Shown one piece after another: positions 5,834 to 62,778 of a stretch of DNA of 64,000 bases; the first letter of the stretch is position 1, and the number at the start of each line of letters is the position of its first letter. Origin of the DNA: Amphiura filiformis (taxonomy: Eukaryota; Echinodermata; Ophiuroidea; Amphilepidida; Amphiuridae). Location: assembly GCF_039555335.1 (NCBI RefSeq), contig NC_092628.1, positions 76,014,713 to 76,078,712 of the forward strand, given 5' to 3'. Below the pieces are notes generated by a model. The model did no database searches. It worked only from the letters and a program-made list of their open reading frames with translations, and was not told the origin of the DNA. Position numbers and translations under genes: made by a program.

Positions 5834-8800
5834 CTACTGGAAACCCTTTTTTGGGAAAGGATGTACAGCTGATTGGATGGTGCACTCTACTCCAACACGG
5901 GCGGTGATCTCATTCTTCTCGGTAAGGGCGGCGATATTGATGATTTTATGTCCCTGTTGGTTTAAATACGAAACGAGATGCTTTTTGTAAAATATTGTAT
6001 CTGTAGCGAACTCAATTTTCAAATTAATTCCAAGGCACACTTATGGTTGGATTTGTCATCCGGTGTGCTACAACGCTCAAGTAAAGCACCAAATGACTTG
6101 TACTAATTGTGGGACTATTCTATGCCATTCCTTCATGATCTTCCAATTTCATGCAGGCATACAACGTCGTCATATAGGGACTGTTAGTGCGTATTATGAA
6201 GCCAATACATTACTGTAACAACACCTCAACCCGAGCCTTAACCCTCTCTAAATATAAAATTATATTCATATTCGAAATGTATTTCCTTTATCATACAATT
6301 ACTTGTACCCGCTTTTATTTGAAGCTATTTGAGGCGGGTGTTTAAATGAATATTCAAGAGTTGCACACGTGAACTTTACTATTTCTTTCAACGCACAATT
6401 TTTCTACTCACCGGTGTTACAAAATACGAATAGAAGAACTTATCAAAAGGAAGTGAGATTTCAACTATAATAAGGAAAAATAAGATTAAAGCAAAAAAAA
6501 ATTAGCAAATCAAGTTATTGTTCGTAGTGCAGTGTGTTACAATTTAGAAGATGATGAAATGATACTCTACATAATGATCAAAAGTTCAAAACAAGATCCG
6601 AGTATTGGTATTTTACATAAGGCCCACACTCAGTACGCCAGTGACCATCCTCTATGCATAGTCGTGTAAAGGTCAATCGATACATGTGGAAATCAGCATA
6701 ATTCAGAAATACACCTTTTTGCTTTGAAATTAATTTCTAGGCCAAATAAAAAACAATTTAATTTTTTTTGGTAATGCCGGATAAAAACATGACACTTGGA
6801 TATACCTTTTAAAAAAATCCTGGTGTTAAAGTTAGGCATGAACTTGTGTCTTTTAGTGCAAGATTGTTTTATAGGCCTCAACTTCTCTTTTCATCTTTTG
6901 TATTCTACATAATACCCTCATTTACTGTTTGCTTGCTCAAGCTGTTTCGTGTATACATACAGCATCCTCCGTTGTAGCAAGTTGAAGCCTGTCAAAATCG
7001 AAAATCTTAAACTAGAAACCTAAATATCAGACCTAAGTTTAACAAAAGGTTTGAAAAAACATTTACTGAAAAAATGAAAATTATTGCTTTCCATTTAGCC
7101 GAAAAAATTAATTTTACAGTGAAAAGGTGGAACTCAAAATTGGTTTTCCCGCCTTGCCACTTTTAACACTGTAATAAGAATTCTCAAAATCTCCTGATAA
7201 TGTATAATATATACTTACCACCTTTCTTGATCGGACAAACTTCCTCCGTGTGACTGAGATCACAATATGGAAATCGAAGCTCATAAGGCCAGAAGTTCAT
7301 GTCTAGCGTAATCATCCCACCAAAAACATCCATTGCTGCAGTAGTAAATAAATATATTTATATTGAGGTATTTGTACCGTTGCTTGCCTCACTCTTCCAA
7401 GTTGCAGTGGCGTACCGTGGCCGCCCCAACCCCAAGAAAATCCAATTTTGCCGCCCCTTCCTCAAAAGCCCGAAAAGGTTGACCCAATTTTTTTTTCTCG
7501 GTCGTTTGAAAAAGTGAGAGCAAAAAAAAAAAAAAAACCGTTTCAGGCGCTAGCGCCCTAAAGCATTTTTTATGCTTTATCAAATTTTTCCGCCCTTTTT
7601 TATTTACTAATTCTTTTTGCCGCCCCTCCTTCATGTTTGCCCCCCTGTTTTTGCCGCCCCTTCTTCTTCCGCCGCCCCTTTATTTTGGCCGCCCCTTGCT
7701 TTTACCCCGGGCGGCTGGCGCCCAAAAGCCCCCCCCCCCAAAAAAAAATACGCGCATGATTAGGTGCGTACTGTATCTGGAAGCTATGAGGGGTTTATTA
7801 AACTAACAATTACAAATGAAGACTACGAATATTGTTGAAACGATCTTTTTAATTAAAAATGAATTTGGTGATTTTTTTTCAACCCCCTAATTTTTTGGCA
7901 TATTTGTAATCTTTTGTAATGTTTATACACGTCCCAAATGACACCTAATTGCATTCAGCCAATGGAGCAAATTTGGAAGAAAGCCATAGTATGACCTACA
8001 ATCACCCATAGAACAGCACAGTCAAGCGGCTAAAATAGTAAATTAGTTTTACCTCATTAGTTTGGCTTAAACTACCAAAAAACTTTCCTGACAGTTGTTA
8101 CTAATAATATTTTATAATATTGACGAAGAATAACCAAGTTAACATTTGACCGAAATTATATAAGGCTTTAATCAACAAATCAGCCGATTGACCATGAGCG
8201 TGTAAACCAACGAACCGATCCTGATTAACAGATTGAAACATGCTCATGCATATTATTCAGCTTTCCTAATGGCAGAAAAAAAACCCCAACTGCACATCAT
8301 ACCCTGGACTCACTAGAGACTGATCTAACTTCTTACTTGGTGTGATTTTGATTGTTCCGTTCACCCACTGGTCTACACTAACAGGCTTCAACACCGTATC
8401 AAATTCTATTTCAAATCGGCCAGGACCTGTAACGTAAGGTATAACATAAAATTAGTTAACTATGCATTTGGGAACTTGGTGTTCCAAAACTAGTCTTTCT
8501 TATCATTTAAATGAAACACATGAGGAAAACTTGATACAGAGCAGCTCTGAAGTGACAAGAAATTATGGCATCGCAATTATGCTATACGAACATGATAATG
8601 ATAAATACAACGTACATACTCAGAAGAAGTAAAAATCACACATGCCTAATCTATTTCAGCTGAAATAAATAATAATGACACTTCGTTGATAAGTACATGA
8701 CAAGTTTTTCCTCCTTCATTTATAACTTCCCTTCCGTATGTTTTTAGCGGGAACTTTTGTTCTCTGTAGACAAGGGGCAGTCTTCAGTGAACAGCTCTTT

Positions 8801-10175
8801 TCAGAGCCACCAAACCACTTACATCAGCAGATAGGCGAGATCTAGCTTGTTCTCTGTTTACAAGAGACAGTCTTCAACGAACGGCTCTTTTCAGAACCAC
8901 CAGTAAGCAAGGGGCGACCTACATGTCTCATTCTTAGGTACTTTGTCCTGAAGAAGTCAGAACTTGACAGTTCTAAACTTATCCGACTGCGAACCCGCTA
9001 AAAAACTTACCAATAGACCTTTTTCCCTCTTTCCCATCATGCACTATTCCAGGGGGTATGAGTGTCGCAAAATACATCATCTCCCCGGGGGAGTACAAAG
9101 TTATGTTCATCACATTCTGGAATACGGACATTTCGGCTGGTGCCTTCATCACAAAAAAAGAATCCCCGATCATCACGATAATGGCGACCCGGGAATGGCG
9201 AGCGATCACTAATACCTTTCGGGGGCAAAAAACAACATTTCTATGCCTTATGGACATGGTGTCCTCACCAAAAAAAGTTTCCTGCTTTTGAAACCTAACT
9301 TTGTATACATTTTATAGACATAAATTAATGATGAAAAACTAATGACGGGACACGCAGTGATATTTTGTCGGCGTCCGTTTCACTTTTTTTTCGGATATGA
9401 AAATAAGACGTAAACAAAATCTCTTACACAGATGTTCTGCATCGCTCCGTAACTGCATCACTCGTGTATTCAATAATTGCATAATTAGTAACATCGATGG
9501 CCTTTACGATAATCCGCATAAATGAAATCAGTATGCCCATATTAAGACAAAATAATTGCAAAGGCCTGGCAAAGACCATCGGATGCACACGATCTATGAG
9601 GTTGATGAACTACGTCATACCCCCCTGGAATAGTGCATTTTGGGATAGAGGAAAAAAGGTCAATTGTTAAGAGCTCTCGTCGTAAAAGCCTATCCCACAA
9701 TTCCCTTCCATTCTTACCAAATGATTGATAGCCACACTTGTCAGCACTTCCATCTGGTACTATACTGATGAATTCACCGCCATCGCCACTCACAGGCGCG
9801 CCTTCAATCAACAACAAACTTGCAGCCAGTAGCGAGAACAAAAGGTAAATATGCAACATCCTGTCAAAAAAGAGCAAGTTCGATAATGATATTTTATGCC
9901 CGATTATGTACACTAATATCAAGCCTGGTTTCCGTTAAAATTGAACGTACATCAAAACGGTATTCTGAAGTTGAGTAGGGCAGCTTTTTTTTCTGTTCAA
10001 AATATATTCTTATTTGAATGCAAGGTAAAAGACAATTTAAAGTTTCAAATTTTCTTGAATTCGGTGAATTTGGTGTTAAAATTGTAGATTCCTATTCATT
10101 ATTTCGAAAGGTCAATATTAGGAAGGGTCGTTAATCCAAATAATTCATTTTTGTACTGACCGATGGCAACCTAAT

Positions 10176-10257
<82 letters not shown>

Positions 10258-10268
10258 GTGTTATTATC

Positions 10269-10313
<45 letters not shown>

Positions 10314-10541: not shown

Positions 10542-11486
10542 GATCGCACCCGGTACCCGTCACCCCGCCCGTCACTTAAAAGCTCAGCATCTACACAATT
10601 CTCAGTTCTTCCAATTCGTTTGTTGGTTACTTGTTAAACCAATCGCGACTGAAATGTGAATATGCTTTATCATATAAGACCATTTTAGACCAGTTAATAT
10701 AAGCAGGTGATAAGCGCACTTAATGTAAATAAATGATTACATATCGTATTATTAATGATTAAATATATCTGTCAACAATTGATTTCGTCATTTGTGTGGA
10801 TTGTTATATATATCATTGGATCAAAGTGATCCGCATCTGCAATTGGGCTTCAGCAAATCATTACAGGCTATAAAGTAAATGGGAAAGTACGTGCAGACTA
10901 CCACTCTCAACATACATTGCATTTTATGATCTCTTATTACATATGATCGCACAATTTATAAAATCACTTTTTAACTTAAGAAACAATGTATTCACTCCAT
11001 AACATTTGAACTATCAGCTATGAATGTTACTTCCTACAAAAAAATGTAGTTCAAGTTGCGTTTTAATCTTTCTAGAACTTACACAAATATAATACATTCC
11101 GCATATATTAAGCAATGGATCATAATGATATTAGAACGAACACGGATGTTAGTTTGATGACGGCATAATAAACACGAGCCACTCCCGGAACCACTTCATG
11201 TAGCCTGACACGTTAAACTTTGCATAAAATCAACTTGTCACGCCTTATTCTGTGTATTTCAACTCACCAATACTTCCGTATGGCAGCCAATCAAATATTT
11301 GACCGATAAAATCATTGTTCATATATATATTCATATTGTTGAGCTCCCAAAATATTTTATATTAATAGATTTTTTATTACGCTGATACTGTATCACTTCA
11401 TTAATTAATTAGTTGTGAAACTTGTTAATTAAATATCAAACCTGTTGTTAATACCGATATGCGATGTTTCAAAAATTTACCGTAAA
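10542..11486. promoter_or_regulatory. Putative divergent promoter of ML gene 1 and LRR receptor gene 1
   Basis: It holds the 5' UTRs and probably both promoters of the head-to-head genes. The stretch is alignable with 41779-42722, and the spacing between start codons is almost identical (945 versus 944 bp). Conserved blocks include AAAAGCTCAGCATCTAC and CCAATTCGTTTGTTGG on the ML side. TTAATTAAATATCAAACCTG lies just before the LRR start. I do not assign a TATA box. Confidence 0.6.
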
Positions 11487-14400
11487 ATGAAGAAAAGTGT
11501 TCATCTTAGCCGTGGCTTTGCCGCATATTTTCTCGTGATATTGTGGGGTGGATGTTTTGTGGGGTTTTCTCAAAGCAGTCGTCTGCAAGCCTGTGATATA
11601 TGTCGATGTGATTCTTCAGTAAGACTTGTCGATTGTAGTGGTGCTAATCTTACCACTTTACCAGATGGAATACCAACAAATGTATCTAAATTGTAAGTAC
11701 GAATTACACGATATCATTCATGGAGTCAAATACCTTTTTCATATAATTCATCAATATATTGTATGCTTGAAACAGATTAAACGTAATAAAACTTTTCTCC
11801 CTCCAAGCATGAATCAACTGAACATTTAGGATTAGGAATGCATTCTGTTGGCAAGTCCGGTTTTCAGCAAGAAAACAGGTTCCATAGTGGCGATGGTCTT
11901 ATACTTTCTTTTACAATTAAAGAGTGGTTTATAATTTTCGCCAAAAGCAAATTCATTGCATAAATGCTGATAAATATCTCATTTTACTAATAGCTTGTCA
12001 TGTCATGTATAAGGAACACACTATTTGACTTCTGGGGGATGGGGATGGAAATTTAGGCACAGGGGCAAGTGGCGAAAGGCAACAATATTATTTATTTTTA
12101 CACTAGGTATTTCCGAGGTGCTTTTTTTAAAAAGATTTTCATGCATTATTGTATACACAGTAAGGTGCGGAATTAGGTTTTTTTCAGTGTTGGTGCATGG
12201 TGGGCATGGTGGGGAAAGTAATTTTTTTGCTCACAGTGTAAACTATGTAAAAACTCCATAAAAGAAATTGTCCTGATTTCTTTGAATAGGGATTTGTCTC
12301 AAAACAATCTTACTAGTATGGATGGCGATTTTGCAGAGAGGTTTCCTGACCTAATGAAACTGTAAGTAAAACACTTTCTGTTTTCTTCTAAATTCCATTT
12401 ACCTGCTGACAATATTATGTTACTTTTATTATATTTGAAGTTCTGTGCATTAATACTAGAACTACTCCTTTCACAAATAAAGTTCTCATTCCCCGCGTTT
12501 TTAAGTATAAAAATATAAAAAATATTAATATACGAGTGCTGTTTATTATTTAAGAAATAAGGGGTAATGTCGAATCCTTTACACCCAAATAATGTGTCCA
12601 AGGCAGTAAAAACGTAAATATTGGGTGATGCGCAACCGAACCCATTATTCAATGTTTTTACTGCAGAGGACACATTATTTGGGTGTAAAGAATAAGGCAG
12701 CAACCTTTATTTATATTTTTTACACCCAAAAGAGTGCGATTTTAAAAGAAAATATGAATTTTGCCCAAATATTTGAAGTTGTTTACATGAAGGTAAATAG
12801 AGAAGTTTTATTCACAGCGCAAGTGACAGCGCATATCACTGGTTATTTCAAACATAGGACTTTCACGTGACGCGTTTTGACAAATCACAGAACGTGATTT
12901 TCAATATTGGGTCGTGAGGGCAATAGAGTATTGTATACATTTACAGGGTACACTTATTCGCCGTAGAAGTGACGTAATAATCGGATTAACTACCATAGCA
13001 ATAGATGAATACAATTTTTGAATAGATCGCCCTGCACTACAAGCAGAGTGCACTCATCACCTGTGTATGTCAGCAAACATAGATTGAATACAATACCACT
13101 CTTTTCAAAGATACTAATCTTACAGGTGCGAGTGATCAGCCTTTCTTTGACATCTATGGTTCAATGCATAGGTACCGCGATATATTCAAGATTGTATTTG
13201 TCTATTGTTAAGTTAGTTAATCCGATTAATTACGTCACCTCTACGGCGAATAGATATATTACTCATGATGTTTAATCTTTTGTTAAGTAGTACTGATCCT
13301 ATAATAGTTTGTTTTGTTGCGAGTTCGAACCCTGGTGGTGCCTAATATGCTCTCGTGGAAAAATTGAGTTAGCTTGAAATTCCCTTGGACAAGGAACTCA
13401 CTGCTAATTTGTCTCGTTGTAACCCTACGAAACTCGGGGAGCTGATCCTGGTTGCGATGGTTATTTGTGGAATGTCTAGGGTGTGCGCTCTTGAAGCAGC
13501 AATGTCCCTGAATTGTTGTTTAATGGTTTATGGAATGATGTGGGGCCATAGTGATCAGCGACAACCTGTAAAGTGTGCTGAGGCTTGTGGATCAACGTCT
13601 AGGCGTTGTGCCTGTGCGTAGCGCACTATAAATCACTGCGCCTTTTTTTTTTTTTTTTTTTGTACTTGTGCTTTTGTGTGCTTTGTGTATCAGTTTGTTT
13701 TGTGAATATTAATAGAATATTGGTTTATTGATTGATTAATTGATTATATACTATCCACAAAATGTTAGGAATATGTTTTCCGTGTTGTCCTTGTTGTGGG
13801 TGTTATTCATGCTCAGGATGGGAATTATAAGTTGTGTTCTATTTTGAGCTATAATAGTTTTCATACAGAATATTTTCGAAATACTTTGATCCAGTAATTA
13901 ATATCGTTGCAAAGTTATAGCAGCCTTGTTGTTTGTTTGTTTGTTTGTTTGTTTGATTATTTGCTTGTTTGTTAAAACGGTTGCTCCGTGTGGAGACACT
14001 TGGGTCCTGATGAAACCAGGCTTAAGCTAAATGCTGAAGCCAGGTAAAAATGCTGGCCGACTAATGGAAATAACAGAAAACAGAACTGAAGATAAAGAAG
14101 GCCACTCCCAACAAATCATGTCAAAATTTTACCGTTAACAAAGGCGCAAGAGCAGGGCGCGATTTACCTTTTTGTGGCCCTGGGCCAGGCCAAAATTTGG
14201 AGGCCCCAAATGCACCGTGGCCAAGGTTTTTTTTTTATTTTACTAAGACATTGAAAATTTCAATTATAGACTTACTTAGGCCAAATTAAAGCTGTTTTGC
14301 TATTCGCGCGCGCAAAATTGTGCAATTTTTGTAGGCTATTTTGGCCCAAAACATAGCGTTTTCGGCTAAAATGGAAGATGCACATTGCACAGGGCAAATT

Positions 14401-17400
14401 TTGGGGCCCCCAAAATTTGGGGGCCCTGGGCCCGGGTCCATCTGGCCCTATGGCAAATCCGGCCCTGCGCAAGAGAGAGGAAATCAACTGCTAGAGACAT
14501 AAACATGAATAGCATCAAGCGAGACCAGCGTTTTAATTTAAGATGTTTTCAAATAAATAACATATTGTAATAACTGATGCACTCTTTAAGTGTATGATGA
14601 ATAATCAAACTAGTGCTCATTTTGCCTGACCATATAGTTATTGCATTTACGGGTTTTTGACCTAAATGCCAAAATTCAACGACGGCCATGTTTGATTATC
14701 TTTAATTTTGATACCAATCTCCCTATACTGTTCTAAATGATATCAAATGATAATGAGGTGGTAGGTACAAAAGGTTCCCTAAAATGAGCGCAAATGATGA
14801 ACATAATGATTATATTGGTTCTTTTGTCACATTTAACAGATTTAACAGATTTTATAAAAAAAAATTGGGATTTGAAGCAAATTTGACCATGAACAGGCGA
14901 TAAACTCTGACACAAGTAACAAATAGAAAAACGTATCTTCCATCTTGGATTTTGGAACACCTAGAGGAAACAAACGTGTTATTTTTTAGCCTAACCCTTG
15001 TACTTGTACAAAGATGTCTTGTGCAAATAATAAATGTGTTTCTTTGTTTTCTTCCTTCCAATAGGAGTGTCGACAATAATTTTCTTTCAAAGGGATTTTC
15101 GTTACCGAAATCTCTCGTAACTCTGCAAGTATTTCTATCATTATCAAGTTATTTGTACAAATAGGAATGTGGACGTGTCTCAAAATCCGTAATATTATGT
15201 AACAATCGTATACACGGGTTATGTTCAATTTGAACCGGCTATCGTAGCTGATAATAATCTATTAGTAGCTGGGAAAGGTAGCGGACAGCTGAAAAGACAA
15301 GTACCGGGGTGCCGGGTTTTGTAGTTCGGGCACCAGCTCAGCACGGTTGGTTGATGTGATCATTTAACAAAACATTTTTTTTTTCAAAAATGGACTTTTC
15401 AAATCTATATCTTTACAATACCAACAGCTAGCTACAACTATCACACTAATATACACATATATTCTTTTAACTATTTTTAACTTTTCTTTATCACAATTTT
15501 CATCTTTTTCTGTCTTTTTGTGGCAATTTTTATTCTATAAACTGTATATATGTGTGTGCAAAGTGAGGGCGCTATTTACATATATTATGAATTTAATTTA
15601 GACCAATAATATGACTTATTCCGTTCATTTTATGCTGAAAAGTAGTTTGAAAATTTCCTTGCTATATGTTACTCATTTTATGATGTTTTAATGCCTTTAT
15701 ACAAATGTCTACCCCTTGTAAAGATGCAAACAAGATTTAAGATAAATCGCGCCATCAGTGCTCAACTTTGCTTTAAAATGAATACAGTTTTACATGCCAT
15801 CAAACAACCGTGATCAAAAAGGGTGCCCATTTACATTTTGCTTCTAGTACTCATGAGAAACATACCACCATGACCACAGGGTCTTACGAAGTTCCAAGAG
15901 GGGAGAATGATATACCCAAATGGAAGGATCAAAATAACTAAAAGAAACGACTTCCACCTCGATCTGGCATCTTTCTGAGTGTCCCATTTGCTGGTGTGTT
16001 AGTTTCAGCAGTAGCAGAAGAGAGTTCCACATATTGACCAATTTGTCAATCATAGTCACTTGCGTTAGTTGTCAATTGATAAGTGGCGCTTGTTTATCAT
16101 TTCAGGTCTGCACAATACAATAGTTTGGAATCATTGGAGGCTTTTTTCACTAACTGTGATAATATGAAAGAAGCGTAAGTAGTAATTAAAACTAATTCTT
16201 GAAATCGATAATAATATTGTGATATTTTAATAACTTTCAACTTAAAAGTTGCGGCGTTAGTAATGATTACCTGATTACGGGTACGATCCAGAAACAGTTT
16301 CATTCACGTGCAGTCGTGCACGTACTGCTTTCCACACTTTTCGCGATATGAGTTTCGCAGTTAAACTTAGTTATAATATGAACAATCTGCAATAAGCAGT
16401 TATGAAAACATACGATGACGAAAACCTTCTTTATTTCAGATACTTGAGCTACAACAGAATTAATTCAATCACAAATGGAACTTTTCTCAAATGTACGAAA
16501 TTGATGCTCTTGTAAGTACTAGTATGTCTTAATGTATAATTACATAAGTATGTATAATATTTATAAGCTAGTAAAAGTAGGCTGCTTATTGTATTCAAAC
16601 AGAATAAGCCAACCTCCATCACATACCAATGTTATACCCTCGTCCTTTCACGCCAAAGCGACTTTCGCTAATCGTAGATCCTCCCTTTTACGCCCAAGCG
16701 ACTTTCGCTAATCGTAGATCCTCCCTTTGCGCCCAAATGACTTTCGCTAATCGTAGATCCTCCCTTTGCGCCCAAATGACTTTCGCTAATCGTAGATCCT
16801 CCCTTTTACGGTCAAGCGACTTTCACTAATCGTAGATCCTCCCTTTGCGCCCAAATGACTTTCGCTAATCGTAGATCCTCCCTTTGCGCCCAAATGACTT
16901 TCGCTAATCGTAGATCCTCCCTTTGCACCCAAATGACTTTCGCTAATCGTAGATCCTCCCTTTTACGGTCAAGCGACTTTCACTAATCGTAGATCCTCCC
17001 TTTGCGCCCAAATGACTTTCACTAATCGTAGATCCTCCCTTTGCGCCCAAATGACTTTCGCTAATCGTAGATCCTCCCTTTGCGCCCAAATAACTTTCGC
17101 TAATCGTAGATCCTCCCTTTGCGCCCAAATGACTTTCGCTAATCGTAGATCCTCCCTTTGCACCCAAATGACTTTCGCTAATCGTAGATCCTCCCTTTGC
17201 GCCCAAATGACTTTCGCTAATCGTAGATCCTCCCTTTGCGCCCAAATGACTTTCGCTAATCGTAGATCCTCCCTTTGCGCCCAAATAACTTTCGCTAATC
17301 GTAGATCCTCCCTTTGCGCCCAAATGACTTTCGCTAATCGTAGATCCTCCCTTTGCACCCAAATGACTTTCGCTAATCGTAGATCCTCCCTTTGCACCCA

Positions 17401-20126
17401 AATGACTTTCGCTAATCGTAGATCCTCCCTTTGCGCCCAAATAACTTTCGCTAATCGTAGATCCTCCCTTTGCGCCCAAATGACTTTCGCTAATCGTAGA
17501 TCCTCCCTTTGCACCCAAATGACTTTCGCTAATCGTAGATCCTCCCTTTGTGCCCAAATGACTTTCGCTAATCGTAGATCCTCCCTTTGCACCCAAATGA
17601 CTTTCGCTAATCGTAGATCCTCCCTTTGCACCCAAATGACTTTCACTAATCGAATACCTTCCTCTTGCATTTCTTCTGGAGGACGATTTGAACTATTTTT
17701 ACTCCACCTTCGGAAGCAATTTTAATTTTAATTGCAATTTTAATGTTTGCCTTTATACAGATTTGGGTGGGGGATTTTTATTTACTCATCAGTGAGGTGG
17801 GTTTTTTTCTTCGCCCTCACCAATATGAGCTAATATGGCGGCCAAGTGGTTTCACTTTTTGGTCGCCGCCCGTTATCCATGTATAGAGGTCAGTGAATAC
17901 AATGAAGGCTGACAGCAATTGAGCACAAGTAACCATGACGTCATTACACTAGACAATTTCGGCGCGGGCTTTTTGAATATATCGCGTGTTGAGAGCCGGC
18001 TGTTTTTATTCGTTTTTATGGTCAATATGAGTTTGATTTATATAAAACCATGTGATTCGTGCCTGATAATTATTTTTCTAACATATAAGGCATAATTGTG
18101 ATTGCCGGAGACATCCTTTAAGGAGGCGCATTATAGGTGTACATCGGTATCAAATAAAACAGTACATTACATTTAATATAGAAAATGGGTTGCAACCTCG
18201 TTCGGTACAAAAAACAAAAAAGTAGGGGGTTAAAACAAGGACATTCAACAAATTCATTTGACCTTGATCATCCCTACTACTCTCCCCTTCTAATATCGAA
18301 GGTGGACGAGAAAAAGAAGGAGGATTCTTCTTTATAGATAACAGAATGAATAATACCAAACAAGACTGATCAACTGTTTTACATTCCAGGGATGTAAGGA
18401 GTAATGCATTTAAAACGATTTCACCTGGTGCCTTTACTGGTCTTGAGTCCATATGCTATTGGTAAGTTGAAAGTTTTTGTGCGTGTGGGGTGGGGGTGGC
18501 GTGGGTATGTGTGGGGGTATGGGGTGTGTATTTGTGTATTTGTGTATGTCTATATATCACAGTCAAACTTATGTTTAGTCTGTAGTGTTGTGATGACATA
18601 ATGAGTGATATATAACAAAATACAAACTGTCTCTTGTGATAATAGAAATATAATTATTTACTGAAAGATGTATTGTCAGATTCTAATCGATCAGAGACTC
18701 AATGATCAATCCATCGTTTAACTCGTGGAATAATTATTTCAACATTGCAACCTTATATATGTATAGTGTGTAGCAATTATTTAATAGCTTCTTTATCATA
18801 AAAGAAATTGTTTATCATTTTAATCAATGTTACATTCTTCCGTTTATTTTCACCAACACCAGCTACATCCGAGATATTGACAGAAATACCGACCCTATGA
18901 ATTTAACAGAAGACACTCTGAAAGGACTTGGAGATAGTTTACAGAAAATGTAAATGTAATATCATGTATATTAAATGTTCAAAAATGTAATATGTGATTT
19001 GGTATGGTGAGTGTCGTCGTTGTTAAAAATCATAACATTATGCCTTATATGTTAGAAAAATAATTATCAAGCATGAATCACGTGTTTTATTTAAAACAAA
19101 CTCATATTGATCATGAAAAGGAATAAAAACAGTCGCCTCTCAACACACGATGTTCAAAATTCCCGCGCCCAAATTGTCTAAGTGTAATGAAGTAATTGTC
19201 GTCAGCCTTCATTGTATTACTGGGACGTCATTACACTCGACAATTTCGGCGCCCGGGAATTTTGAATATTGAGAGACGGATGTTTTTATTCGTTTTTATG
19301 GCGACTATGAGGTTTTTTTAAAAATAAAACCACGTGATTCATGCTTGATAATTATTTTTCTTACATATAAGGCATAATGTTGTGATTGCCGAAGACCCCC
19401 CTTTAAAGCTGTTTAATGCTCAAAGAATACACCATGTGATTTGGTATACGGAGGCGTATTTGACAGGTGTTCTCAACACAAAATTAAGACGTACCTCAAA
19501 TTTTCGGTCACAACTTTGACCTTCATCTGGAAACTGGCAACCCAAGTTTGGGATCAGTGACCTTTTGGACACTTGACCCCAAAACCCGGTCGTACACTCT
19601 GGGTAACTTGTATCGGCCCCCGTCGCGGTACTTTTTTTTTTATAGAAAAATGGTCAGATAATTTACAACTTTATACAAATCTGTCTTATAAAATGTTGCT
19701 TCGAATCAAATCACTTTAACATAATTTTTCATTTATAAACTTATTAACAGATCTTTCCATGGCGACCAGTTCCTTAACATTGGATCCAAAACGTTTGGTT
19801 CATTCATGAAGTTGCATACTTTGTAAGTACCTTTCCTATGTAAGTTTCTAAATGTTCAAATCGACGGGGCACGTTCCCTCATGCCCCTTATGAAGGTATG
19901 CCACTGGCAAATAGTAGCTTCTTTTTAAAATGTCGTTTTTATTACTTGCAATTGACTGCAACATAATTGCAATTGGCCGGGAAAAAGGTGTTCGTAGAAC
20001 ATATTTTGTTTAGAAGATTTGTGTCCAATTTACATGATTTGTGTATATTTGACACATGCTTCGTGTACACTCACATTGTTTTAATATATGATTTATGTAA
20101 AGATTTTGTCCTGTGATAAAGCGCTA

Positions 20127-20207
<81 letters not shown>

Positions 20208-23200
20208 TTATTATTATTATTATCATCGTCGTCGTCGTCGTCGTCATCAGGGACTTAGCGAGAGTGAACGTGAAAGGCACAATGCAAGGAGCATTCCTTC
20301 CTGCAGATAATGGACAGATTATCAGAAGATTGTAAGTAAATAAATGGCCAATCTAATGTAATGGTTATGGTAATGTAACATTATAAATCTAGAGCCATAA
20401 CGAAATGGACTTGTAGACGTCACTCTAAAGGATTCCAAAGTTTAGGAGTTATTCAGAAGTGATGTCACTTTCCTGCTTCCTCTACTTGAAGTTGGTCTGA
20501 AACATGTGACACCTAATATGACAATGACCACAACATTTGACATTTTCGCTTATAACTGATGAGAATGGTGCCTCACAGATGGGTCAAATTACTAAACACA
20601 ATTTGAGCAATGTGGACAATAGGCCCCTGCATAAAGTTTAATGACCTTTTTCTCATACTGGGCATCAATTGATTTTTCTCTTTATGTTTTCATGTGGAAA
20701 CCTTTTCGGCGCCCGGGAATTTTGAATATCACGTGTTGAGACGGCTGTATTAATTCGTTTTTATGGTTAATATGAGTTTGTTTCAAATAAAACCACGTGA
20801 TTCGTGCTTGATAATTAATTTTCTATCATATAAGGCATAATGTTGTGGTTGCCGGAGTTATCCTTTAGAGATTTAACATAATAACATGATAATGAAACGT
20901 TTTGTTTACTTGTCCAGGTTTTGACATTTTCTTGGACTACAGCTGTTTATATTGTGATTAAAATTACAAACCAAACAAAATTAAATATTTCCATTTCGCA
21001 GGATCTTAAGCATGGCACACATACCAAATCTTTCTACATGTAAGGACATATTCAAAGGACTCGATGTTGTATATTTACTGTAAGTAATAATCATTATATA
21101 AAACCTATTCATTTACCAAAACAATTATTATAATTTATTTCATTAAGGTTTATTGTTCTTTATATAAGAGACAGATGTCTGTGAATTGTATTATCCTCTA
21201 TTTCCACCGCCCCGCGCCGTCACTCCTTGGATCCGAAGGAACTCTCATCCAAATCAGAATGTTAGCATACCATTTGGACTCCAAATTTTGGAGTGACGGA
21301 GTGTGTCTGTATCAAAACACAACAACTAGGCAACCAATCATATTAAGATGAAGATGAGTCTTTAAGTTCGGTTTGAGGAGCAGAAGCGTTAAGAGATGAT
21401 CGCTGAAACTCATTCAGTGTAAAAGGGTTTAACATTATGATCTTATAATTCATAGCCCTGCTGTTCGGTAATATTATATTGTACTAAATACATTTATATC
21501 GTTTGAAACTTGTCTTTTTCAGGCATATGAATAGGATGAACCTTAAGTCTCTTCCACGAGGTATATTTGCTAATCTCTCCATCAACTACATGTTGTAAGT
21601 AAACAATAAAGAACTTAATTTTAAAAGAAATAATTCATACTTATACATGGTGGCAGGGTGCACTACCATATACGATATTGGTACGTGTCATGTGTCTGTC
21701 TATAAACTGCCTTTCTTGAGGCAAACTTTTACCAAATGACACCTCTTTTCATTAGACATTTGTGCCCTGAAAGTTATTTTCACCGTAAGTGACACCCAAT
21801 TTTAGCGGTCACACACTCAATGACCCAATTTTCTTGGAAGCCCACACTAAATGATCCCTTTCTTTTCTTAAAAATATACATTGTCGTACTCCGGTATAAG
21901 TACATCACTTTCATATTCGAATGTAATCCCATCCCCCCTCCGGACATGGTGCGACGTAATAAACACACATTCCTGATAACTTTTAAACCACGAATTTAAG
22001 GAAAGCATGTACGAAACTCTGTCATTGCTGTACAATAATGGTTAGGGATGTAATAATGGTATAGGGGAAACTAAAGTCATAAGACGGAATGACGGCTAGG
22101 ATTTGGCAGGCGAAATGTAAACTTAAATACGAGCGTACCTGAATTATACTTACATGTGGTCTTAAAATTGTTTGGGACGCTAAAAGAAAATAATCATTTT
22201 GTGTCAATTTCTAAGGAAGGATTGACCTTTGTTTAATTGTATACTTGAATGTGCGGACCGTTTTCCTTACGGTCTTCCTACTCTATTTCCAGAGATTTAT
22301 CTTTTAACACCTTAGGAAGTCTACCAGATTTTTTCTTATCCTCATCACCAGACCTATCTAAACTTTACCTGGGACACAACAAACTCCGTGTTATTAACAA
22401 TAATACATTTGCAGGATTGTATTCGCTACAAGAGCTGTAAGTATCACAATCTATGATGTGCAAAAATGAATACTTAGACAATGGCCGCAATGTGGCAATT
22501 ATTACTTTTGGTATTGATTGGTAAATATTTAGGCTTTGCCTTTGTTGTCGCATTTTATTTCTTTTCCAGAAAGAGTCCAGCTTCTTTTTGAACGCTAAAA
22601 CGGTCTTTGCATTAAAAACTTCTTGATAGGTCTGTCACACTACGACGGACTGGATCAACGTACATCACCGAATACAAAAATATTTTATTCGGTGGAAAAA
22701 TCACCAGTCCGGCAGAAGGTTCGGTGGGATTTTGGGTCCGATTCCCGTTCGTCTCTCTGTGCGTTGTGGCCGCTAATAATCCTGCAGGCGTCTTATATCC
22801 GATCGTTCAACGTCCGACAATTGACCGGATTTGGGGGTCCGATTCCCGTTCGTTTCTATATGCGTTGTGGCCGCTAATAATCCTGCAGGCGTCTTATATT
22901 CGATCGTCAACGTCCGACAAATGACCGGATTTGGGGTCAACGTCCGACAAATGTCCGGATTTGGGGTCCGGTTCCCGTTCGTCTCTCTATGCGTTGTGGC
23001 CGCTAATAATCCTGCAGGCGTTTTATATTCAATCGTTTAACGTCCGACAAATGACCGGCGAATCCGTGGCATGTGGCACCAACAGGCACATCCGCCCTAT
23101 CAGAAAAGTGGGGGAGGAGAGGGTGTTTGAGAGGGTTTTTGACCCCTTAGAGGCAGTGACGTAGCAAGCACTTTTTCAGAGGGTGAACAAAGTGGGGAAA

Positions 23201-26200
23201 GACAACTTTTAAGGGGGAAAAACTTTGACGAAATGGTCAAATATTGGCTAATAAGTACAAAAGGGTTACAAAATCTGATATATCAGGGCAACCAGCGTCC
23301 GGGGGCAATAGAGGTGATCAAAAATGAGAAACCTTTGGACAATGAAGGCCCAATTGAAGCCATTTGTCATTTTTGGATCAATTTTAGCACTATTATTGGA
23401 TACTATTTTAGTTTGAAACAGTCGCAAATTGGTGAAACGAAAGCCTAATTGAAGCCATTGAAAAGTTTTCATAACACGTGGATGTCCATAGCAGAAGCAA
23501 AAAGGAAGACTTGTCCATTTTTCAAAATGAAGGTCCAATTGAAGCCATTTGCATGGGGACTGTAGGGCCTATTTACATTATTAGGCCTAGGCCTATTGTG
23601 TAAAAATATAGTTTTAAAAATGTAAAATTTGGAAAATTGTTTTTGGTGCATCATTTTTACACTATTATTGCCTTAAACAAAAAAACAAAGAAGGCCCGAA
23701 CTGAATTTGCAAAATTTAAAATGTTACACTGATCCACTGACTAAGTGTCAGATATAAGACTTCAGACTCGTAATTTCAGGTAAAGCATGCATGGATTGAT
23801 ATGTTAAAGTCAGTAATAGACCTAAGTCCGTCTTAAATACTGACTTTGGTGACAAAATGTCACGGGCCCTACATACATGACATATCGACGGGCCGGCAGT
23901 AATTTTTACAGGCTTTTGGGCCAAGGAACCACATTTAAGCACTGCCTATAATAATCACAGGCCTATACTTAGGCTTACTATATAGGCCTACTATCCTGGG
24001 TCTACTCAATAACGTACAATTTAACCTTTTCCATGTTTTCTCTTCTTTTTTCTTTCTTGTCAATCACTAAAACTGGTAGAAATTTGATATTGCGTCCTCT
24101 ACCCTTCAGAAAGTGCCCCTCCCTCAATACTACTTACATGCATAGGCCTACTAAATTACATGCAATTTAACCATGTTAACTTTTTCTCTTCTCTTCTCTT
24201 CTCTCTTCAATTTTTCTCACTTTCTTTTCTTTTTTCTCTCCTTTCCCCCTTTTTTCTACTTGTCAGTCACTAAAGTACTGGGGGAAATATGATATTGCGT
24301 CACACACCCTTCAGAAAGCCCCCCCCCCCATGATCGATGCACATGTTCGCCATAGGCCTACATCCGGCACAAGCGCCTGCGAAACCTTGCAAACACCTGC
24401 GGTATATAAACGAAAGAATAACGAACAAACCCAGGGTATATATACAGAACAGTACGAACACACATCGGACAACTTCCGAACATGTGTATTCGGCACACTC
24501 CGTTTCAAGTTTTGTGCATGCACAAAACTTGAAACGTATTGTCGACGGACTAAACAAACATCACCTAACACGAAACGCATTTGGCGGATAATAGCAGGAC
24601 ATATGAAGAACATAAAACGAACATTTACGAACACAAACGGATTTGCTAAAATACCATCCGTTTCTTATACGGAAGACCGATCCGGTGTAGTGTGACACTA
24701 ACACGGTCTGGGTCAACGTACATCACCGAATGCAAAAATATGCTATCCGGTGGTGAAGGCCTCACAGGAACGTATTTGCAACGAACACGGGCCGAGTGCA
24801 ACGAACAAAGAACGTACATGAACGAAAGGAGAGCGAACAAACTCCGGCAATATGCAGCACCATACGAACACACATCGGATAAATACCGAACATGTGTATT
24901 CGGTACACTCCGTTTCAAGTTTTGTGCATGCACAAAACTTGCCGACGGACTTAACGAACATCACCTAACACGAAACGCATTTGGCGGATGATAGCAGGAC
25001 ATAAAAAGAACATAAAACGATCATTGACGAACAACAACGGATTTACTAAAATACCATCCGTTTCTTGTACGGAAGACCTATTCGGTGTAGTGTGACAGTA
25101 ACTTGAGGTAGAGCATTTCAGACATTTAACCAATGTTCTTGCTTAGTGTTAACCTGAAGAGTCTCAACGAATGATCTCTAGCAACTTCTTAAAAATGATA
25201 TTCAGGGGAGTTGCTAGCTGAACAGAACACCTGCGGATGCAACTGGTCAGGGCAACTATCAGGTTTCAGGGCATCTAATTTATATTTCACATATCCTATA
25301 TTAAAACTACAACTGACTTGCTCAGTTCAGGATATCAGCTACTTAGATGCATCACCAATGTTACTATTACATAAAATTGGTACTTTGTCTATACTCGCGC
25401 ATCAGTCGCTGCCAATCAGGGTGGAAACTGGTATAAATACTTATCATGTGTCAAAAGCTCACATACCGTAGATAGCTGTACAACTAGCAGCGGGAAGAAA
25501 TTTTAAAATATATACATATGCCTTATATATTATTTGCAGTTATCTCTACCAAAATGACATTCATGTTATCAGTGGACAACCTTTTATGTATACCAACTTA
25601 GCGCGCTTGTAAGTATGGACAACCTTTTATGTATACCAACTTAGCGCGCTTGTAAGTATGGACAACCTTTTATGTATACCAACTTAGCGCGCTTGTAAGT
25701 ATGGACAACATTTTATGTATACCAACTTAGTGCCCGGGCTTATTGCGCTTGTAAGTATGGACAACCTTTAAAGTATACCAACTTATCGTGCTTGTAAGTA
25801 TGGACAACCTTTTATAATGAGAGACAGAGATAAAAAGATTTTATCGCGTCTGACGTCATCTGTCAATCAAACTCGAGCACGGTTTGTTTACAAGTGTCGT
25901 GATGATGACTTGCGGCGGTATAACCGGGCGCCTTATTGTTAATTTTGCACCATCAAACATACAAACCATCTCAAAAGTTAGGTCTTTATAGTAGGAAACT
26001 TTCTTTCGCGAAGGCACCATGCCAACAATGCCTAGAAAAGTTGCTTTTTGTCTTGTAAAAGTACGTAATTTTTCGCCATTTTCTGCTATTCCTTTTCTCC
26101 GATCGGCACCAGATAAATCGGCATTCCTTTTACGCGCTATTAACCTGTGTAAACCAATCAAGGATCGTAATTGACAGTGACATCAGACGCGATAAAATCT

Positions 26201-29200
26201 TTTTATCTCTGTCTTTCATTATAAGTATACCAACTTAGCGCGCTTGTAAGTATGGACAACCTTTTATGGTATACCAACTTATACCAACTTAGTGCAGTTG
26301 TAAGTATGGGCAACCTTCCATGTATACCAACTTACTGCGCTTGTAAGTATGGGTTCCATGTATACCAACTTAGAACTTAGTGCGCTTGTAAGTATGGGCA
26401 ATCTTTCATGTATACCATCCTAGTGCATTGTAAATACGAATAACCTTTTATGTATACCAACTTCGTGCGCTTGTAAGTATGACAAACCTTTACGTATACT
26501 AGTACAATCGTAAGTACGGGCCGCACCTTAGTGTTAATATGCGGTCTACCTGTACTATATGGTGTCGAGTCAGTTACCAAGTTAATGGCGGCACCCGTTT
26601 TGTTCGAATCAATGGTAGCACTTTTATGAATAACCTGCCAGCACTGAATCAAATCCAGGTGGTGTATGACGTGCAGTCCCTAAATTCAGTAAATTTTCAT
26701 CGTCAACCGTGCAATTGAATGGGATTATTTTGAAATTTTAAAACGCTTGAAATATCACAAACAAATAGGCCTATGTTGATAAATAATATAATTACAAGCT
26801 AAAACCGTTGGGGTTCGATAATGAACCCCACAAAACTAGCCGAGTACATGGAAAATGCCATACGGCCGGGCGGTTTCACGAGTTGCCGGCTCGATCATGT
26901 CATCCGCCGCCTGATCAAATCCACATCAATGGAGTCAGGCAAAGGAGCAAAGCGTTACGTAATCTATTGTGTCTCCATATTTATGTAACCATGGTAACCT
27001 CCTTGGTTGCGCCTACCTGTTATCATGTTTTAAATTCTTCGTTTAAATGATCAATATAATCACTATATTTAAATACATTCAAATATTTCTTTATTTTTAA
27101 ACAGGTTTCTGTACGACAACAATCTTACGTCACTCGACCATGCCTATTTTGCCACGTATTATCGTACACTGGATAAACTGTAAGCATGAAAACTGTTATT
27201 TGAATCCATTCCATTCAGTGTCAAGGCGTTTTGATTTCTTTGTCATCAGAATACCCACAGATTTCAGATTCCTGGTGATTCATAATACAATTTAACGTCA
27301 TTTTCTGGTATTTTGATAGTAACCCAGCAAACACAAAACGTTTTCGACATCATTCGCAAAAAATTATAAAATGTTGCCAAAAACGTTTAAATGTCGGGTT
27401 ACATAAAGGGTACATTAATGGTATAAAAAGTTTTCATAACATTAAAAAACATTTGTTGGTAATTTACTGCACAGCAAACACAAATGTTTTACAGAAAACA
27501 TTTAAATGTCGGGTTATATAAAGGGTATAAAAACGTTCCAAAAACATTTTTGAAAACTTGGTACAAACCATTCTAAACAGAATGTTATTTTGGGGTTGAA
27601 AAATATTTTGCAAAAATGTTTGCCCAAAATATTTACAATAACGTTTTTAAAATATTTTCACGACCTTTATATAACCCGACATTTAAATGTTATTAAAACG
27701 TTTTGTAAAAAACATTTTAAGAACTGTGTTTGCTGGGTGCAAATATTTCAACATAATGTTATTTAAGTGTTGACAAAATATTTGGCCAAAAGTGTTTGCA
27801 AAAATAGTTTACAATGACATTTCGAAAACATTTTAAAAATATTGTTGTAGTGTGTTTTCATACAAAACGTTTTTAAAACGATTTCATGACCTTTAGTTAC
27901 ATAACCCGACATTTTAATGTTATTAAAACGTTTTTACCTAAACCAAAACCCAAAATATAACTTATTTAAAACGTTTTAAAAACGTTTTTGTGTTTGCTGG
28001 GAATATGTATTATCATTTTCTCTACCAAGAACTGGAAATAAGTTTATTCATTAGGGGTTGTGCCTTTTTGGCCCGTCTTGTCCCCCCCCCCCCTTGGATA
28101 TTGGCTCTCCTAAAATTCAATTTGTATATTGCCCGATATCTTGAAACCTACAAATGGACATGTGCAACTCAAGTCAATTATCTTTATTTTTTAGATTGAT
28201 TAACTGTACTATTATTATCTATTTACTATGATTGTTTTGCTCCCTCTCATTTTCTAGTCACCTGTATTACAACGATATAGCGTCAATTTCTAACGACGCT
28301 TTCAATCTAATTGCACCGAATGCTAAAGTGTAAGTATTAAGTATACTTAACCCGCTTTACATGCTGAAGAAAAGTATTGTGTTTTACAAGGAGATCGTGC
28401 ACCTGTTATCAGCATTCTTGTGAGGAATCATGTGCGAACCACATACCCCTTGTGGGTACTTTTATTTTGTGGAGGTATATTAAAATGTATGATCCCACAA
28501 GTTGGTGCTTTACCGGACCCTATATGACACGCAACCCTCAAAATGGTATTTTTAGAGATATCACATACGGGGTGTATTATGGTCCCTGTATAAACACAAA
28601 ATGTGTTTCCCACAAGGCAAACGCCGGTGCTTGTTTGCATATACCCCACAAGGACACTCATATACTCACAAGGACACTTATATTCCCCACAAAGACACTA
28701 TAGCAATATTATTAGGACCCCCACAAAGATATGGTCCACAAGGGGATGCTTCCACTAATTATTTAGGTACTTGGTACTTGGTACTTGGTTGGTTTTCCTC
28801 CGTAGAATACCGCAGGGGCATTTTGACAGGAGGTGGGTGGTCACAGAAAATTAAGGGGGGGTGATGCTCTGTTTAAATGTGGTCTTGGAAGGATGGTTGA
28901 TGGAGTCTTGTTGAAGGTCGTTCCACTGCCTGATGGTCCTAGGGAAGAATGCGTTGGTGCAGGGGTCCAGTTTGGTAGAGTAGATTGGAACTGTTGGTCA
29001 TGTCCTCTTCTCGTCCTGTCGGTCTTGGGAGTGGTATATGTCTTGGAGATGTCCAGGTCGCCGTGATGAATCTTGAATAAGCATGTCAGACGCTCCTGAA
29101 GGCTATGCCAACCGAGGGTTTCTAACATCTGGGATACACTAGCTTCATAAGAGTAGTTCCCCGTTGTGAAGCGAGCAGCTCTGCGTTGGACCTTTTCAAG

Positions 29201-36126: not shown

Positions 36127-36181
<55 letters not shown>
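36075..36181. repeat. (TTTA)n microsatellite
   Basis: A near-perfect TTTA array of about 107 bp. It is followed at once by a hairpin (36192-36286) whose arms are AGTATAGACCTCTGAAAA and its inverse. Confidence 0.95.
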
Positions 36182-36368: not shown

Positions 36369-36370
36369 TT

Positions 36371-36441
<71 letters not shown>

Positions 36442-36444
36442 TTT
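36369..36444. repeat. (TTTA)n microsatellite, second array
   Basis: A perfect TTTA array of about 75 bp, 190 bp beyond the first. The stretch from here to 37.9 kb shows no gene. Confidence 0.95.
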
Positions 36445-40900: not shown

Positions 40901-41778
40901 GATGTCGCAGCATACATTTAAATGAAAGTAACTCAAGTTTGAATTTGATCAAAATCCTATTGCCTTCCATTCAGTATCCATGGAAGGAATTGTGTTCGAC
41001 GCTCATTGGATTATTCTTTTTGTTTCGTAAAATTTGAAAGTCAAAACATGTGATAATCTATAAAAAAAATTGTCATTATTCACATCAGTTGTAATAGTTT
41101 ACTTAATGCCGTAATTTCAATATCTTCTGTGACCAACAAGGTCATAAGAAGTGGAAACCCAAGGATTACATCTGTTGGCAACACCCGCCAATCTATCAGG
41201 AGATTTGGTATCTAAATTTACCACTAAAAGGACAACTTGTTGCAATTTAGGACTTTGTTGGTCTGGTCAGAAACAGTATGAGTATTGAAATCTTCAAGCT
41301 CATGTTTCATGTTTCATTCTTACCAAATGATTGAAAGCCACACTTATCAGCACTTCCCTCTGGTACTATACTGATGAATTCACCTCCATCGCCACTCATA
41401 GGCGCACCCCGAATTAACAGCAAACTTGAAGTCAGCAGCGAAAACAAAAGATAAATATGCAACTTCCTGCAAGGAATGAAAGTCGGAATATGTCAAAGTG
41501 GTCAGGATCCTGGGTTTACCAAGATAAAGAGCTAGGGATTGGTTGAATACATTTTGAATGTGTTTCCTTCTGAGCTTTTTCTTTTCAATGTTTGTAGAAA
41601 GAAATGATTAAATCATCATTTTCAGCCTGTTGATGTAGGTACACAGAGTTGGATATAATAATTTTTACTTTTACTCCACCTGTAATAAGTAATACCGAGA
41701 GCGTTTTACTTACCTGATTGTCTAGATGTCGTTATATAAAAGTTCTATATTGCAACATATTTAAGGTCATACTTACAT
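37932..41778 (-). CDS. Secreted ML-domain (GM2-activator-like) lipid-binding protein, copy 2
   Basis: The minus-strand exons are 41778-41777, 41466-41324, 40726-40637, 40366-40250, 39450-39398 and 38051-37932, giving 174 residues. They correspond one to one with copy 1. The signal peptide is MKLHIYLLFSLLTSS and on. The ML landmarks DKCGFQSFG, NGT, FPYCDLGHTEEICPIKKD, GHK and GVEC are all kept. Here the start codon exists only after splicing (AT|G), because copy 1's second Met is Lys. An in-frame TAG lies a few codons upstream in the 5' exon. Substitutions relative to copy 1 are many but leave the fold motifs intact, which suggests selection. The gene is divergent from the LRR receptor at 42723. 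Confidence 0.85.
39590..40110. repeat. Imperfect foldback repeat in ML gene 2 intron 3-4
   Basis: GGGGTCAATCAAAGGTTAAC near 39721 and GTTAACTTTTGATTGACCCC near 39978 are inverted copies. Further inverse similarity exists around CAGCCAGGGTCC and GAGGGTCCTGGCT. It lies between ML exons 4 and 3 of unit 2 and is absent from unit 1. The ends are not well defined. Confidence 0.5.
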
Positions 41779-42722
41779 TTTCGTACCCTAGCACGTAAAA
41801 GCTCAGCATCTACTCAATTGTTTCCAATTCGTTTGTTGGCCAACTTCTTGACCCAACTCAAAAGTTACAATATAAATGGAAATGCTTTATCATTCAAGAC
41901 ATTCAAGGTAGTCAACACCAGCGTGCAATCAATGTATCTTCCAACAATTATCTTTCATATCTTTCAACACTTAATCTCGTTATCTATATGTCTGTGTCAA
42001 TAATATCATTGGATTAATGAGCCATCATCAAATCATTATAGGTTATAAAATTATAAATGGGGAATACCTACAGACGTTTACACCATTTTATCACCATATT
42101 ATTACCAATGATTATCGTATAGCTCTCCCTCTCTTTCTGATTCTCTCCACAGACTCTATATCCATCTATCTTTTCAATCACCACGCTGCTTTTTGGAAAG
42201 AAACCAACGCCGTTACACAATAACATTTGAGCTATGGATACTAAATAATCATGTTACAAATTGTGTTTTATTTTTTCAGAAACTTAGAACAAATAAATAA
42301 AAATCCCCATATCTTAAGTAATGGATATCATAGATAGTCTCCTTCACTATCTATGTGGGTATGGACATACTCTAAGTATGGAGATAACAAGGATTTTGAA
42401 TTGATAAAGTCTGCAAACAAAGTAAACATTATAAAGTAATCTTTATGTAACTTGACGCATAGAAAAATATGCCTTGTATTCATGGTATTTCAGCTCATCG
42501 ATACACTCAATGTGACATGGCTACACCCAATCTATAGCTATCTATGAGCGATAAATCACTGTTCTTGTTGATGTGCTCTTATTGAGACCTTATTGATAGT
42601 GTTTTTATAACACTAATACTATATTTATCACGTTATCAATAAATTAACTAGTTCTGAAAAGTGTTAATTAAATATCAAACCTGTTATTACCGATATGCAA
42701 CGTGTTAGTATTTTGCCTTAAA
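41779..42722. promoter_or_regulatory. Putative divergent promoter of ML gene 2 and LRR receptor gene 2
   Basis: It aligns with 10542-11486 over most of its length. Shared blocks include AAAAGCTCAGCATCTAC, CCAATTCGTTTGTTGG, CAAATCATTA and the 5' UTR block TTAATTAAATATCAAACCTG. Confidence 0.6.

Positions 42723-54245: not shown

Positions 54246-54303
<58 letters not shown>

Positions 54304-55453: not shown

Positions 55454-55540
<87 letters not shown>

Positions 55541-62778: not shown

What the first reader, a model, noticed from the sequence alone, without database searches (positions are those of the whole stretch)
5834..62778. Tandemly duplicated head-to-head module: LRR multi-pass receptor plus secreted ML-domain protein
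Seen: two units with an ML gene on minus and an LRR receptor gene on plus, start codons 945 and 944 bp apart, exons open in both. Known: vertebrate MD-2 is an ML protein that binds the LRR ectodomain of TLR4 to present lipid A. Inference: the divergent, co-duplicated pair may be a co-regulated lipid-sensing receptor and co-receptor built on a different membrane domain (multi-pass, no TIR). I know of no described system with this pairing.
Basis: partly seen in the sequence, partly recalled or inferred. Interest (0 to 1): 0.82.

Follow-up and report, generated by a model that had tools for sequence, protein, structure and literature searches.

The report
Duplicated LRR-receptor and ML-like gene pair
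An animal-like genome carries two neighbouring copies of a back-to-back gene pair, one gene for a small secreted protein that distantly resembles lipid carriers and one for a membrane receptor with a leucine-rich-repeat head; they may work together to sense a lipid, but nothing here proves that they touch.

Summary
The geometry is real. Two units, with proteins 81-82% identical, arose by tandem duplication. Each has a minus-strand six-exon gene for a 174-aa secreted-type protein and a plus-strand LRR receptor gene; start codons lie 945 and 944 bp apart, as reported, if the small gene's start codon is split by an intron (AT|G). Both copies are open; dS is alike for the two genes (0.23, 0.26) with omega about 0.4, so the pair was copied together and kept. 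Receptor A is 1126 aa: 14 LRRs, TNFR/ephrin-receptor-like Cys-rich stretch, at least 7 hydropathy peaks, no TIR match. Receptor B leaves the window before its membrane part. The 'ML' label is weaker than claimed: Pfam and phmmer give nothing at E<=10; support is the cysteine pattern and alignment to NPC2-type ML proteins, with no signal to MD-2 itself. The twin units are one event, not two independent linkages. No animal genome collection was on hand, so conserved linkage is untested. Best reading: an ML-like lipid carrier serving a TIR-less multi-pass LRR receptor (0.35); linkage without joint function is about as likely.

The parts
5834..10551 (-). ML-like gene, copy A: leader exon ending at 10540 (AT of the split start codon) and coding exons 9718-9860, 8337-8426, 7219-7335, 6412-6464, 5834-5953; 174 aa
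   Evidence: spliced model; paired with copy B by tblastx
37932..41789 (-). ML-like gene, copy B: leader exon ending at 41777 (AT of split start codon) and coding exons 41324-41466, 40637-40726, 40250-40366, 39398-39450, 37932-38051; 174 aa
   Evidence: 142 of 174 residues identical to copy A
10542..11486 (.). 945-bp interval between the two start codons, copy A (candidate shared promoter region; includes the leader exon of the ML-like gene)
41779..42722 (.). 944-bp interval between the two start codons, copy B
11487..11692 (+). receptor A exon 1: hydrophobic N-terminus, LRRNT-like Cys cluster, start of first LRR
   Evidence: LRRNT below Pfam cut-off
12290..28329 (+). receptor A exons 2-14 (14 LRR units): 12290-12361, 16106-16174, 16440-16511, 18390-18461, 18863-18949, 19751-19822, 20251-20331, 21002-21079, 21523-21594, 22293-22436 (two LRRs), 25540-25608, 27105-27179, 28258-28329
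   Evidence: LRR_8 above Pfam cut-off
30043..30233 (+). receptor A exon 15: Cys-rich, TNFR_ELAPOR1/Ephrin_rec_like similarity (below Pfam cut-offs)
31046..32994 (+). receptor A exon 16: Cys-rich stretch and multi-pass membrane domain, stop codon
42723..62778 (+). receptor B exons 1-14: 42723-42919, 43159-43230, 44920-44988, 47576-47647, 48116-48187, 49395-49472, 50090-50161, 53534-53611, 54009-54080, 55902-55973, 59181-59324, 61072-61140, 62135-62209, 62707-62778; the rest lies beyond the window
   Evidence: 327 of 404 residues identical to copy A

Best explanation
Two copies of a divergent gene pair, made by one tandem duplication in an animal-like genome. Shown from sequence: each pair has a gene for a secreted-type 174-aa protein and a gene for an LRR receptor; both genes are kept open in both copies; in the complete copy the receptor carries an LRR ectodomain, a TNFR/ephrin-receptor-like Cys-rich stalk and a multi-pass membrane domain with no TIR. 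Inferred: the small protein is a remote member of the ML superfamily of lipid carriers, nearer to NPC2-type members than to MD-2, and binds a lipid in a beta-sandwich pocket. Inferred and unproven: it is secreted by the same or nearby cells from a shared regulatory region, and the lipid-loaded protein is read by the LRR ectodomain of the neighbouring receptor, which signals through its membrane domain (channel-like or GPCR-like), as MD-2 serves TLR4 but with a different output. The duplication gave two such pairs whose receptors differ most in the middle LRRs, which would suit two ligand specificities.
For: Head-to-head order, exon structure and open frames in both units. dS alike for the two genes (ML 0.230, 95% 0.14-0.34; receptor 0.258, 0.19-0.33) and omega 0.39 and 0.40. 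ML-like features: four cysteines in both copies with spacing 60/9/47, comparable with the first-to-hairpin, hairpin and hairpin-to-last spacing in NPC2 (66/6/41) and GM2A (60 from first to second Cys, 45 before the last); global alignment to ant NPC2 (3wea) reached by 0 of 500 shuffles for A and for B (z 6.8, 5.4), and the sum over seven ML proteins by 0 of 500 for each copy, also with cysteines held fixed; NPC2-group hmmsearch --max reached by 6 (A) and 1 (B) of 2000 shuffles. LRR ectodomain matches IGFALS (2e-31), TLR3 and LGR4 chains. Receptor copies differ most in exons 5-9: pN 0.191 against 0.055, and at surface rather than scaffold LRR positions: 15 of 39 concave-strand and 16 of 52 other exposed against 4 of 52 scaffold. 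Precedent for ML with LRR receptor outside vertebrates: PMC9832027 (passages).
Against: No Pfam hit for the small protein at E<=10, no PDB hit by phmmer at E<=10, and a two-sequence profile finds only unrelated chains. Alignments to MD-2 and mouse GM2A are no better than shuffles; of 14 single comparisons only the two with ant NPC2 were beyond all shuffles, and with cysteines fixed one of 500 reached B's score; hhalign gives 7-9% probability for the NPC2 and pooled sets and no excess for GM2A or MD-2; the GM2A HMM shows no signal. Concave-face positions are not more variable than other exposed ones (p 0.51), and the synonymous rate is also raised in the middle exons (pS 0.348 against 0.159), so patchy gene conversion may explain the pattern without selection on ligand binding. 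One duplication only; no interaction, expression or other-species data.
Confidence: 0.35

Rival explanations
1. Linkage without joint function: an ML-like lipid carrier and an LRR receptor happen to be neighbours, perhaps sharing a bidirectional promoter, and were copied together once; each works with other partners.
For: A single segmental duplication explains the repeated arrangement (equal dS). The core of the interval is barely above shuffles. The small protein aligns with NPC2-type carriers, which work without an LRR receptor (recalled), and not with MD-2.
Against: Both genes are retained in both copies, and the start-to-start length is kept (945/944) although none of 18 introns is within 5%; weak.
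Confidence: 0.4
2. A linked ligand-receptor recognition pair for gamete or self/non-self recognition, in which tight divergent linkage keeps matched alleles together, as in the Ciona Themis pairs.
For: [quoted passage not shown] Here too: secreted protein plus multi-pass receptor, opposite strands, duplicated pair, fast-changing block in the receptor ectodomain.
Against: No polymorphism data; the ML-like protein is no faster than the receptor (dN 0.090 and 0.104); different protein families and head-to-head rather than nested.
Confidence: 0.1
3. The small protein is not an ML protein but another secreted family with a similar cysteine arrangement, and the lipid-sensing idea falls.
For: No Pfam, phmmer or profile match; only four cysteines; the shuffle tests rest mainly on one ML sequence.
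Against: Cysteine spacing and the sum over seven ML proteins, 0 of 500 shuffles in each copy.
Confidence: 0.2

Closest known systems
Vertebrate TLR4-MD-2 and RP105-MD-1 (recalled; MD-2 and MD-1 chains seen as PDB entries)
   Same: secreted small protein of ML type (here remote) and an LRR receptor
   Different: no TIR match, multi-pass membrane domain with Cys-rich stalk; small protein shows no sequence signal to MD-2; TLR4 and MD-2 genes are not a head-to-head pair (recalled)
Shrimp PvML1 with PvToll2 (PMC9832027, passages)
   Same: invertebrate ML protein said to bind LPS and to act through an LRR receptor of the Toll family
   Different: six-cysteine ML domain found by SMART, Toll receptor; no gene pairing noted in the passages seen
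NPC2 (PDB 1nep, 5kwy, 3wea) and GM2 activator (1g13, 2agc)
   Same: secreted lipid carriers; cysteine spacing alike; ant NPC2 is the best single alignment
   Different: NPC2 has a third disulfide pair of cysteines that is absent here; no receptor partner of LRR type (recalled)
LGR-type receptors (LGR4/5, relaxin receptor; PDB chains)
   Same: LRR ectodomain joined to a multi-pass domain; one LRR per exon with phase-2 introns (for LGRs recalled)
   Different: no 7tm family match in Pfam at E<=1; Cys-rich stalk; membrane domain weakly like fungal-type TRP family PF06011
Ciona s-Themis/v-Themis pairs (PMC7018956, passages)
   Same: secreted protein and multi-pass receptor on opposite strands, more than one pair
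   Different: nested in an intron, polycystin-1-like and fibrinogen-like proteins

Membership tests
ML (MD-2-related lipid-recognition) family, Pfam PF02221 | match to the family profile | tested here: not met
   no Pfam family at E<=10 for trimmed A, B and two sub-regions, nor for the full proteins at E<=1
ML (MD-2-related lipid-recognition) family, Pfam PF02221 | about 130-160 residues behind a signal peptide | tested here: met
   174 aa with hydrophobic N-terminus read by eye, no signal-peptide program run
ML (MD-2-related lipid-recognition) family, Pfam PF02221 | conserved disulfides: first with last cysteine, and a hairpin pair | tested here: inconclusive
   four cysteines at 43, 103, 112, 159 in both copies fit these positions; pairing itself not tested
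ML (MD-2-related lipid-recognition) family, Pfam PF02221 | sequence relation to known members | tested here: inconclusive
   beyond 500 of 500 shuffles to ant NPC2 and on the sum of seven members; not to MD-2 or mouse GM2A; hhalign probability 7-9%
ML (MD-2-related lipid-recognition) family, Pfam PF02221 | beta-sandwich fold with lipid pocket | not testable with these tools
Toll-like receptors | LRR ectodomain | tested here: met
   LRR_8 1e-32; TLR3 chains among the best PDB hits
Toll-like receptors | single membrane helix and cytosolic TIR domain | tested here: not met
   no TIR among the 9 families listed at E<=1 for the 1126-aa protein; 7 separate hydropathy peaks in the last exon; copy A only
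LGR / rhodopsin-type LRR GPCR | 7tm_1 domain | tested here: not met
   no 7tm family at E<=1
TRP/Flc-like family PF06011 | profile match above the curated cut-off | tested here: not met
   16.0 bits against 28.5, E 0.0056, residues 514-637 of the last exon
TLR4-MD-2-like receptor/co-receptor pair | physical binding of the secreted protein to the LRR ectodomain | not testable with these tools
   needs binding assay or complex model
TLR4-MD-2-like receptor/co-receptor pair | conserved association of the two families across species | not tested
   no animal genome collection on hand; own genome not held; membrane exon and ML-like pair searched only in viral and prokaryotic collections, nothing found

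The most novel reading that the evidence does not exclude
A lipid-sensing system in which an ML-type carrier loads a TIR-less, multi-pass LRR receptor, encoded as a co-regulated divergent pair that is duplicated as a unit so that carrier and receptor diverge together; that is, an independent use of the MD-2/LRR principle with channel-like or GPCR-like output.
Probability: 0.2. Interest if true: 0.85.

Novelty: new variant of a known kind. Interest (0 to 1): 0.5.

Why it matters
If the two proteins bind each other, the MD-2 principle (a soluble lipid carrier read by an LRR ectodomain) would exist on a receptor without TIR and with several membrane passes, so lipid sensing by LRR receptors would not be tied to Toll signalling. 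The tight divergent pairing would then be a handle for finding such systems in animal genomes. If they do not, this is an ordinary tandem duplication of two neighbouring genes.

Tried and rejected
A first ML-like model without exon 5 gave a phase clash between exons 4 and 6 and no Pfam hit; the missing 53-bp exon (6412-6464, 39398-39450) resolves the phases. The Pfam also used a receptor string with two residues wrong at exon joins; it was repeated with the final model.

MD-2 as closest relative: rejected, no signal. GM2A: looks alike by eye but the tests do not bear it out (human GM2A 18 and 71 of 500 shuffles reach, mouse 53 and 173 of 500).

Relatives elsewhere: membrane exon in viral contigs (2 pattern matches, 0 confirmed) and genome contigs (8, 0 confirmed); ML-like pair in viral contigs (93, 0 confirmed). 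The LRR part was not used as a query. Membrane exon against PDB sequences: best E 0.55. AlphaFold model of the membrane exon alone, without relatives: mean pLDDT 42.1, pTM 0.28, so no fold search was made. Rfam and tRNA scans: nothing. Taxon not determined.

Positive selection on the receptor: not claimed; the middle block has omega 0.47 and also a raised synonymous rate. Concave-face enrichment against other exposed positions: not found (p 0.51; exon 6 was dropped there because of its length difference).

Literature: ten searches, each with a fixed set of terms in an open-licence library; I saw listings and starts of abstracts, and passages of two papers only. In those listings I saw no paper on this pairing; one search listed 12 of 60.

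Full report
What is there. The window is a eukaryotic sequence (spliced genes, 31-40% GC in 4-kb steps); no genome is held for it. A comparison of bases 1-37000 with 37001-64000 pairs a series of short segments in the same order and strand. Read with splice sites they give two genes per unit. On the minus strand is a gene with a leader exon and five coding exons for a 174-aa protein with a hydrophobic N-terminus, in both copies. On the plus strand is a receptor gene: 16 exons and 1126 aa in copy A; in copy B 14 exons lie in the window, and the rest would lie beyond base 64000 (in A the next exon starts 1714 bp after exon 14; B has 1222 bp left).

The start codon of the minus-strand gene is split AT|G by the first intron. 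In copy A a second ATG follows at once; in copy B it reads AAG, so the split codon is the only start before the hydrophobic stretch.

One duplication. Proteins of A and B are 142 of 174 (ML-like) and 327 of 404 (receptor part shared) identical. dS is 0.230 (bootstrap 95% 0.14-0.34) and 0.258 (0.19-0.33), omega 0.39 (0.23-0.68) and 0.40 (0.29-0.56). Both genes were copied together and purifying selection dominated since. This also means that the second unit is no independent evidence for a functional link.

The small protein. Pfam lists nothing at E<=10 for the trimmed proteins or at E<=1 for the full ones; phmmer against PDB finds nothing at E<=10, and a profile of both copies finds three unrelated chains at E 0.3-0.5. 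Against seven ML chains (three NPC2, Der f 2, two GM2A, one MD-2): hhalign scores 22.97 for the NPC2/Der f 2 set and 22.37 for all seven, above the best of 100 column shuffles (20.3, 19.5), but with only 7-9% probability, and no excess for GM2A (15.60, shuffle maximum 20.8) or MD-2 (13.49, 19.3). hmmsearch without filters: pooled HMM 7.0 and 6.9 bits, each reached by 3 of 2000 shuffles and 7 of 2000 with cysteines fixed; NPC2 set 5.8 and 7.4 bits, reached by 6 and 1 of 2000; GM2A set no signal. Global alignment: ant NPC2 beyond all 500 shuffles for both copies (with cysteines fixed 0 and 1 of 500), bovine NPC2 with B 7 of 500, the other comparisons weaker, MD-2 none; the sum over the seven beyond 500 of 500 for both copies. 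The four cysteines sit 60, 9 and 47 residues apart; in NPC2 the matching distances are 66, 6-9 and 41, in GM2A 60 and 45 at the two ends. I conclude that it is probably a remote ML-superfamily member of NPC2 type, and that the MD-2 comparison rests on function, not on sequence.

The receptor. LRR_8 is well above its Pfam cut-off; LRRNT, TNFR_ELAPOR1_6th, Ephrin_rec_like, DUF7630 and TRP (PF06011) are listed below their cut-offs. No TIR or 7tm family is listed at E<=1. The LRR part matches 266 PDB sequences at E<=0.001 (60 shown), best IGFALS 2e-31, then TLR3 and LGR4. Thirteen exons carry 14 LRRs, most of them one repeat per exon with phase-2 introns. The last exon has seven separate hydropathy peaks; a model without relatives is too poor to use (mean pLDDT 42). 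The C-terminal tail is short; the largest loop between peaks is acidic.

Where the copies differ. Receptor exons 5-9 differ more than the rest: pN 0.191 against 0.055 (Fisher 3e-10; 0 of 2000 permutations reach the best five-exon block) and pS 0.348 against 0.159 (p 0.001; 9 of 2000). The raised pS suggests that the flanks were partly homogenised by gene conversion or that the centre diverged earlier; omega is 0.47 against 0.32, so no positive selection is shown. Within the repeats, differences fall on surface positions (15 of 39 concave strand, 16 of 52 other exposed) rather than scaffold (4 of 52), without preference for the concave face (exon 6 left out).

The interval between the genes. 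It aligns at 525 of 843 positions (62%), with 211 gap columns, against 44% mean and 47% maximum in 20 shuffles. Over all columns it keeps 0.49, more than any of the 11 of 18 introns compared (0.15-0.44; 7 long ones skipped). Most of this lies at the two transcript starts; the middle is only just above shuffles (z 1.5). The equal length (945/944) stands out against the introns (closest ratio 1.06 of 18). This is mild support for a shared control region.

How it most likely works. Shown: gene structure, co-duplication, retention. Inferred: the small protein carries a lipid. Inferred, unproven: it is made together with the receptor and presented to the LRR ectodomain, which signals through the multi-pass domain. 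I give this 0.35. Linkage without joint function gets 0.4, a recognition pair of the Themis kind 0.1, and a wrong ML assignment 0.2 (these overlap and need not sum to one).

Known relatives. ML with an LRR receptor: TLR4-MD-2 (recalled) and shrimp PvML1-PvToll2 (PMC9832027, passages). Opposite-strand secreted protein and multi-pass receptor pairs: Ciona Themis (PMC7018956, passages). I saw neither a receptor of this make nor its pairing with an ML gene in the listings; the library lacks most subscription papers. Linkage in other species could not be tested: the collections on hand are prokaryotic, viral and plasmid (searches found no relative).

Noticed in passing
16660-17652: Array of about 25 copies of a 39-bp unit at 94% matches, in a receptor intron of copy A; it makes long open frames on both strands that are not genes.
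   Followed up: no
25573-25730, 26226-26499, 61104-61539: The end of receptor exon 12 with its splice donor is repeated as a 43-bp minisatellite in the following intron in both copies, so several identical candidate donors stand in a row.
   Followed up: partly
1377-2006, 2906-3478, 4333-4515, 44383-44835: A dispersed repeat family, partly in inverted order, also in a receptor B intron with a 168-bp tandem duplication.
   Followed up: no
51842-52117 (-), 28841-29383 (-): Reverse-transcriptase remnant (RVT_1 E 5e-4, below cut-off); the second frame looks like a LINE fragment by eye but has no such Pfam match.
   Followed up: partly
63447-63761 (+): Frame with helix-turn-helix similarity (HTH_32 E 1e-4, PAX 5e-4, both below cut-off), by eye like a Tc1-type transposase start.
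   Followed up: partly
exons of both units: Divergence is patchy: ML-like exon 7219-7335 has no synonymous difference, while the last ML-like exon has pS 0.35, which suggests gene conversion between the copies.
   Followed up: partly
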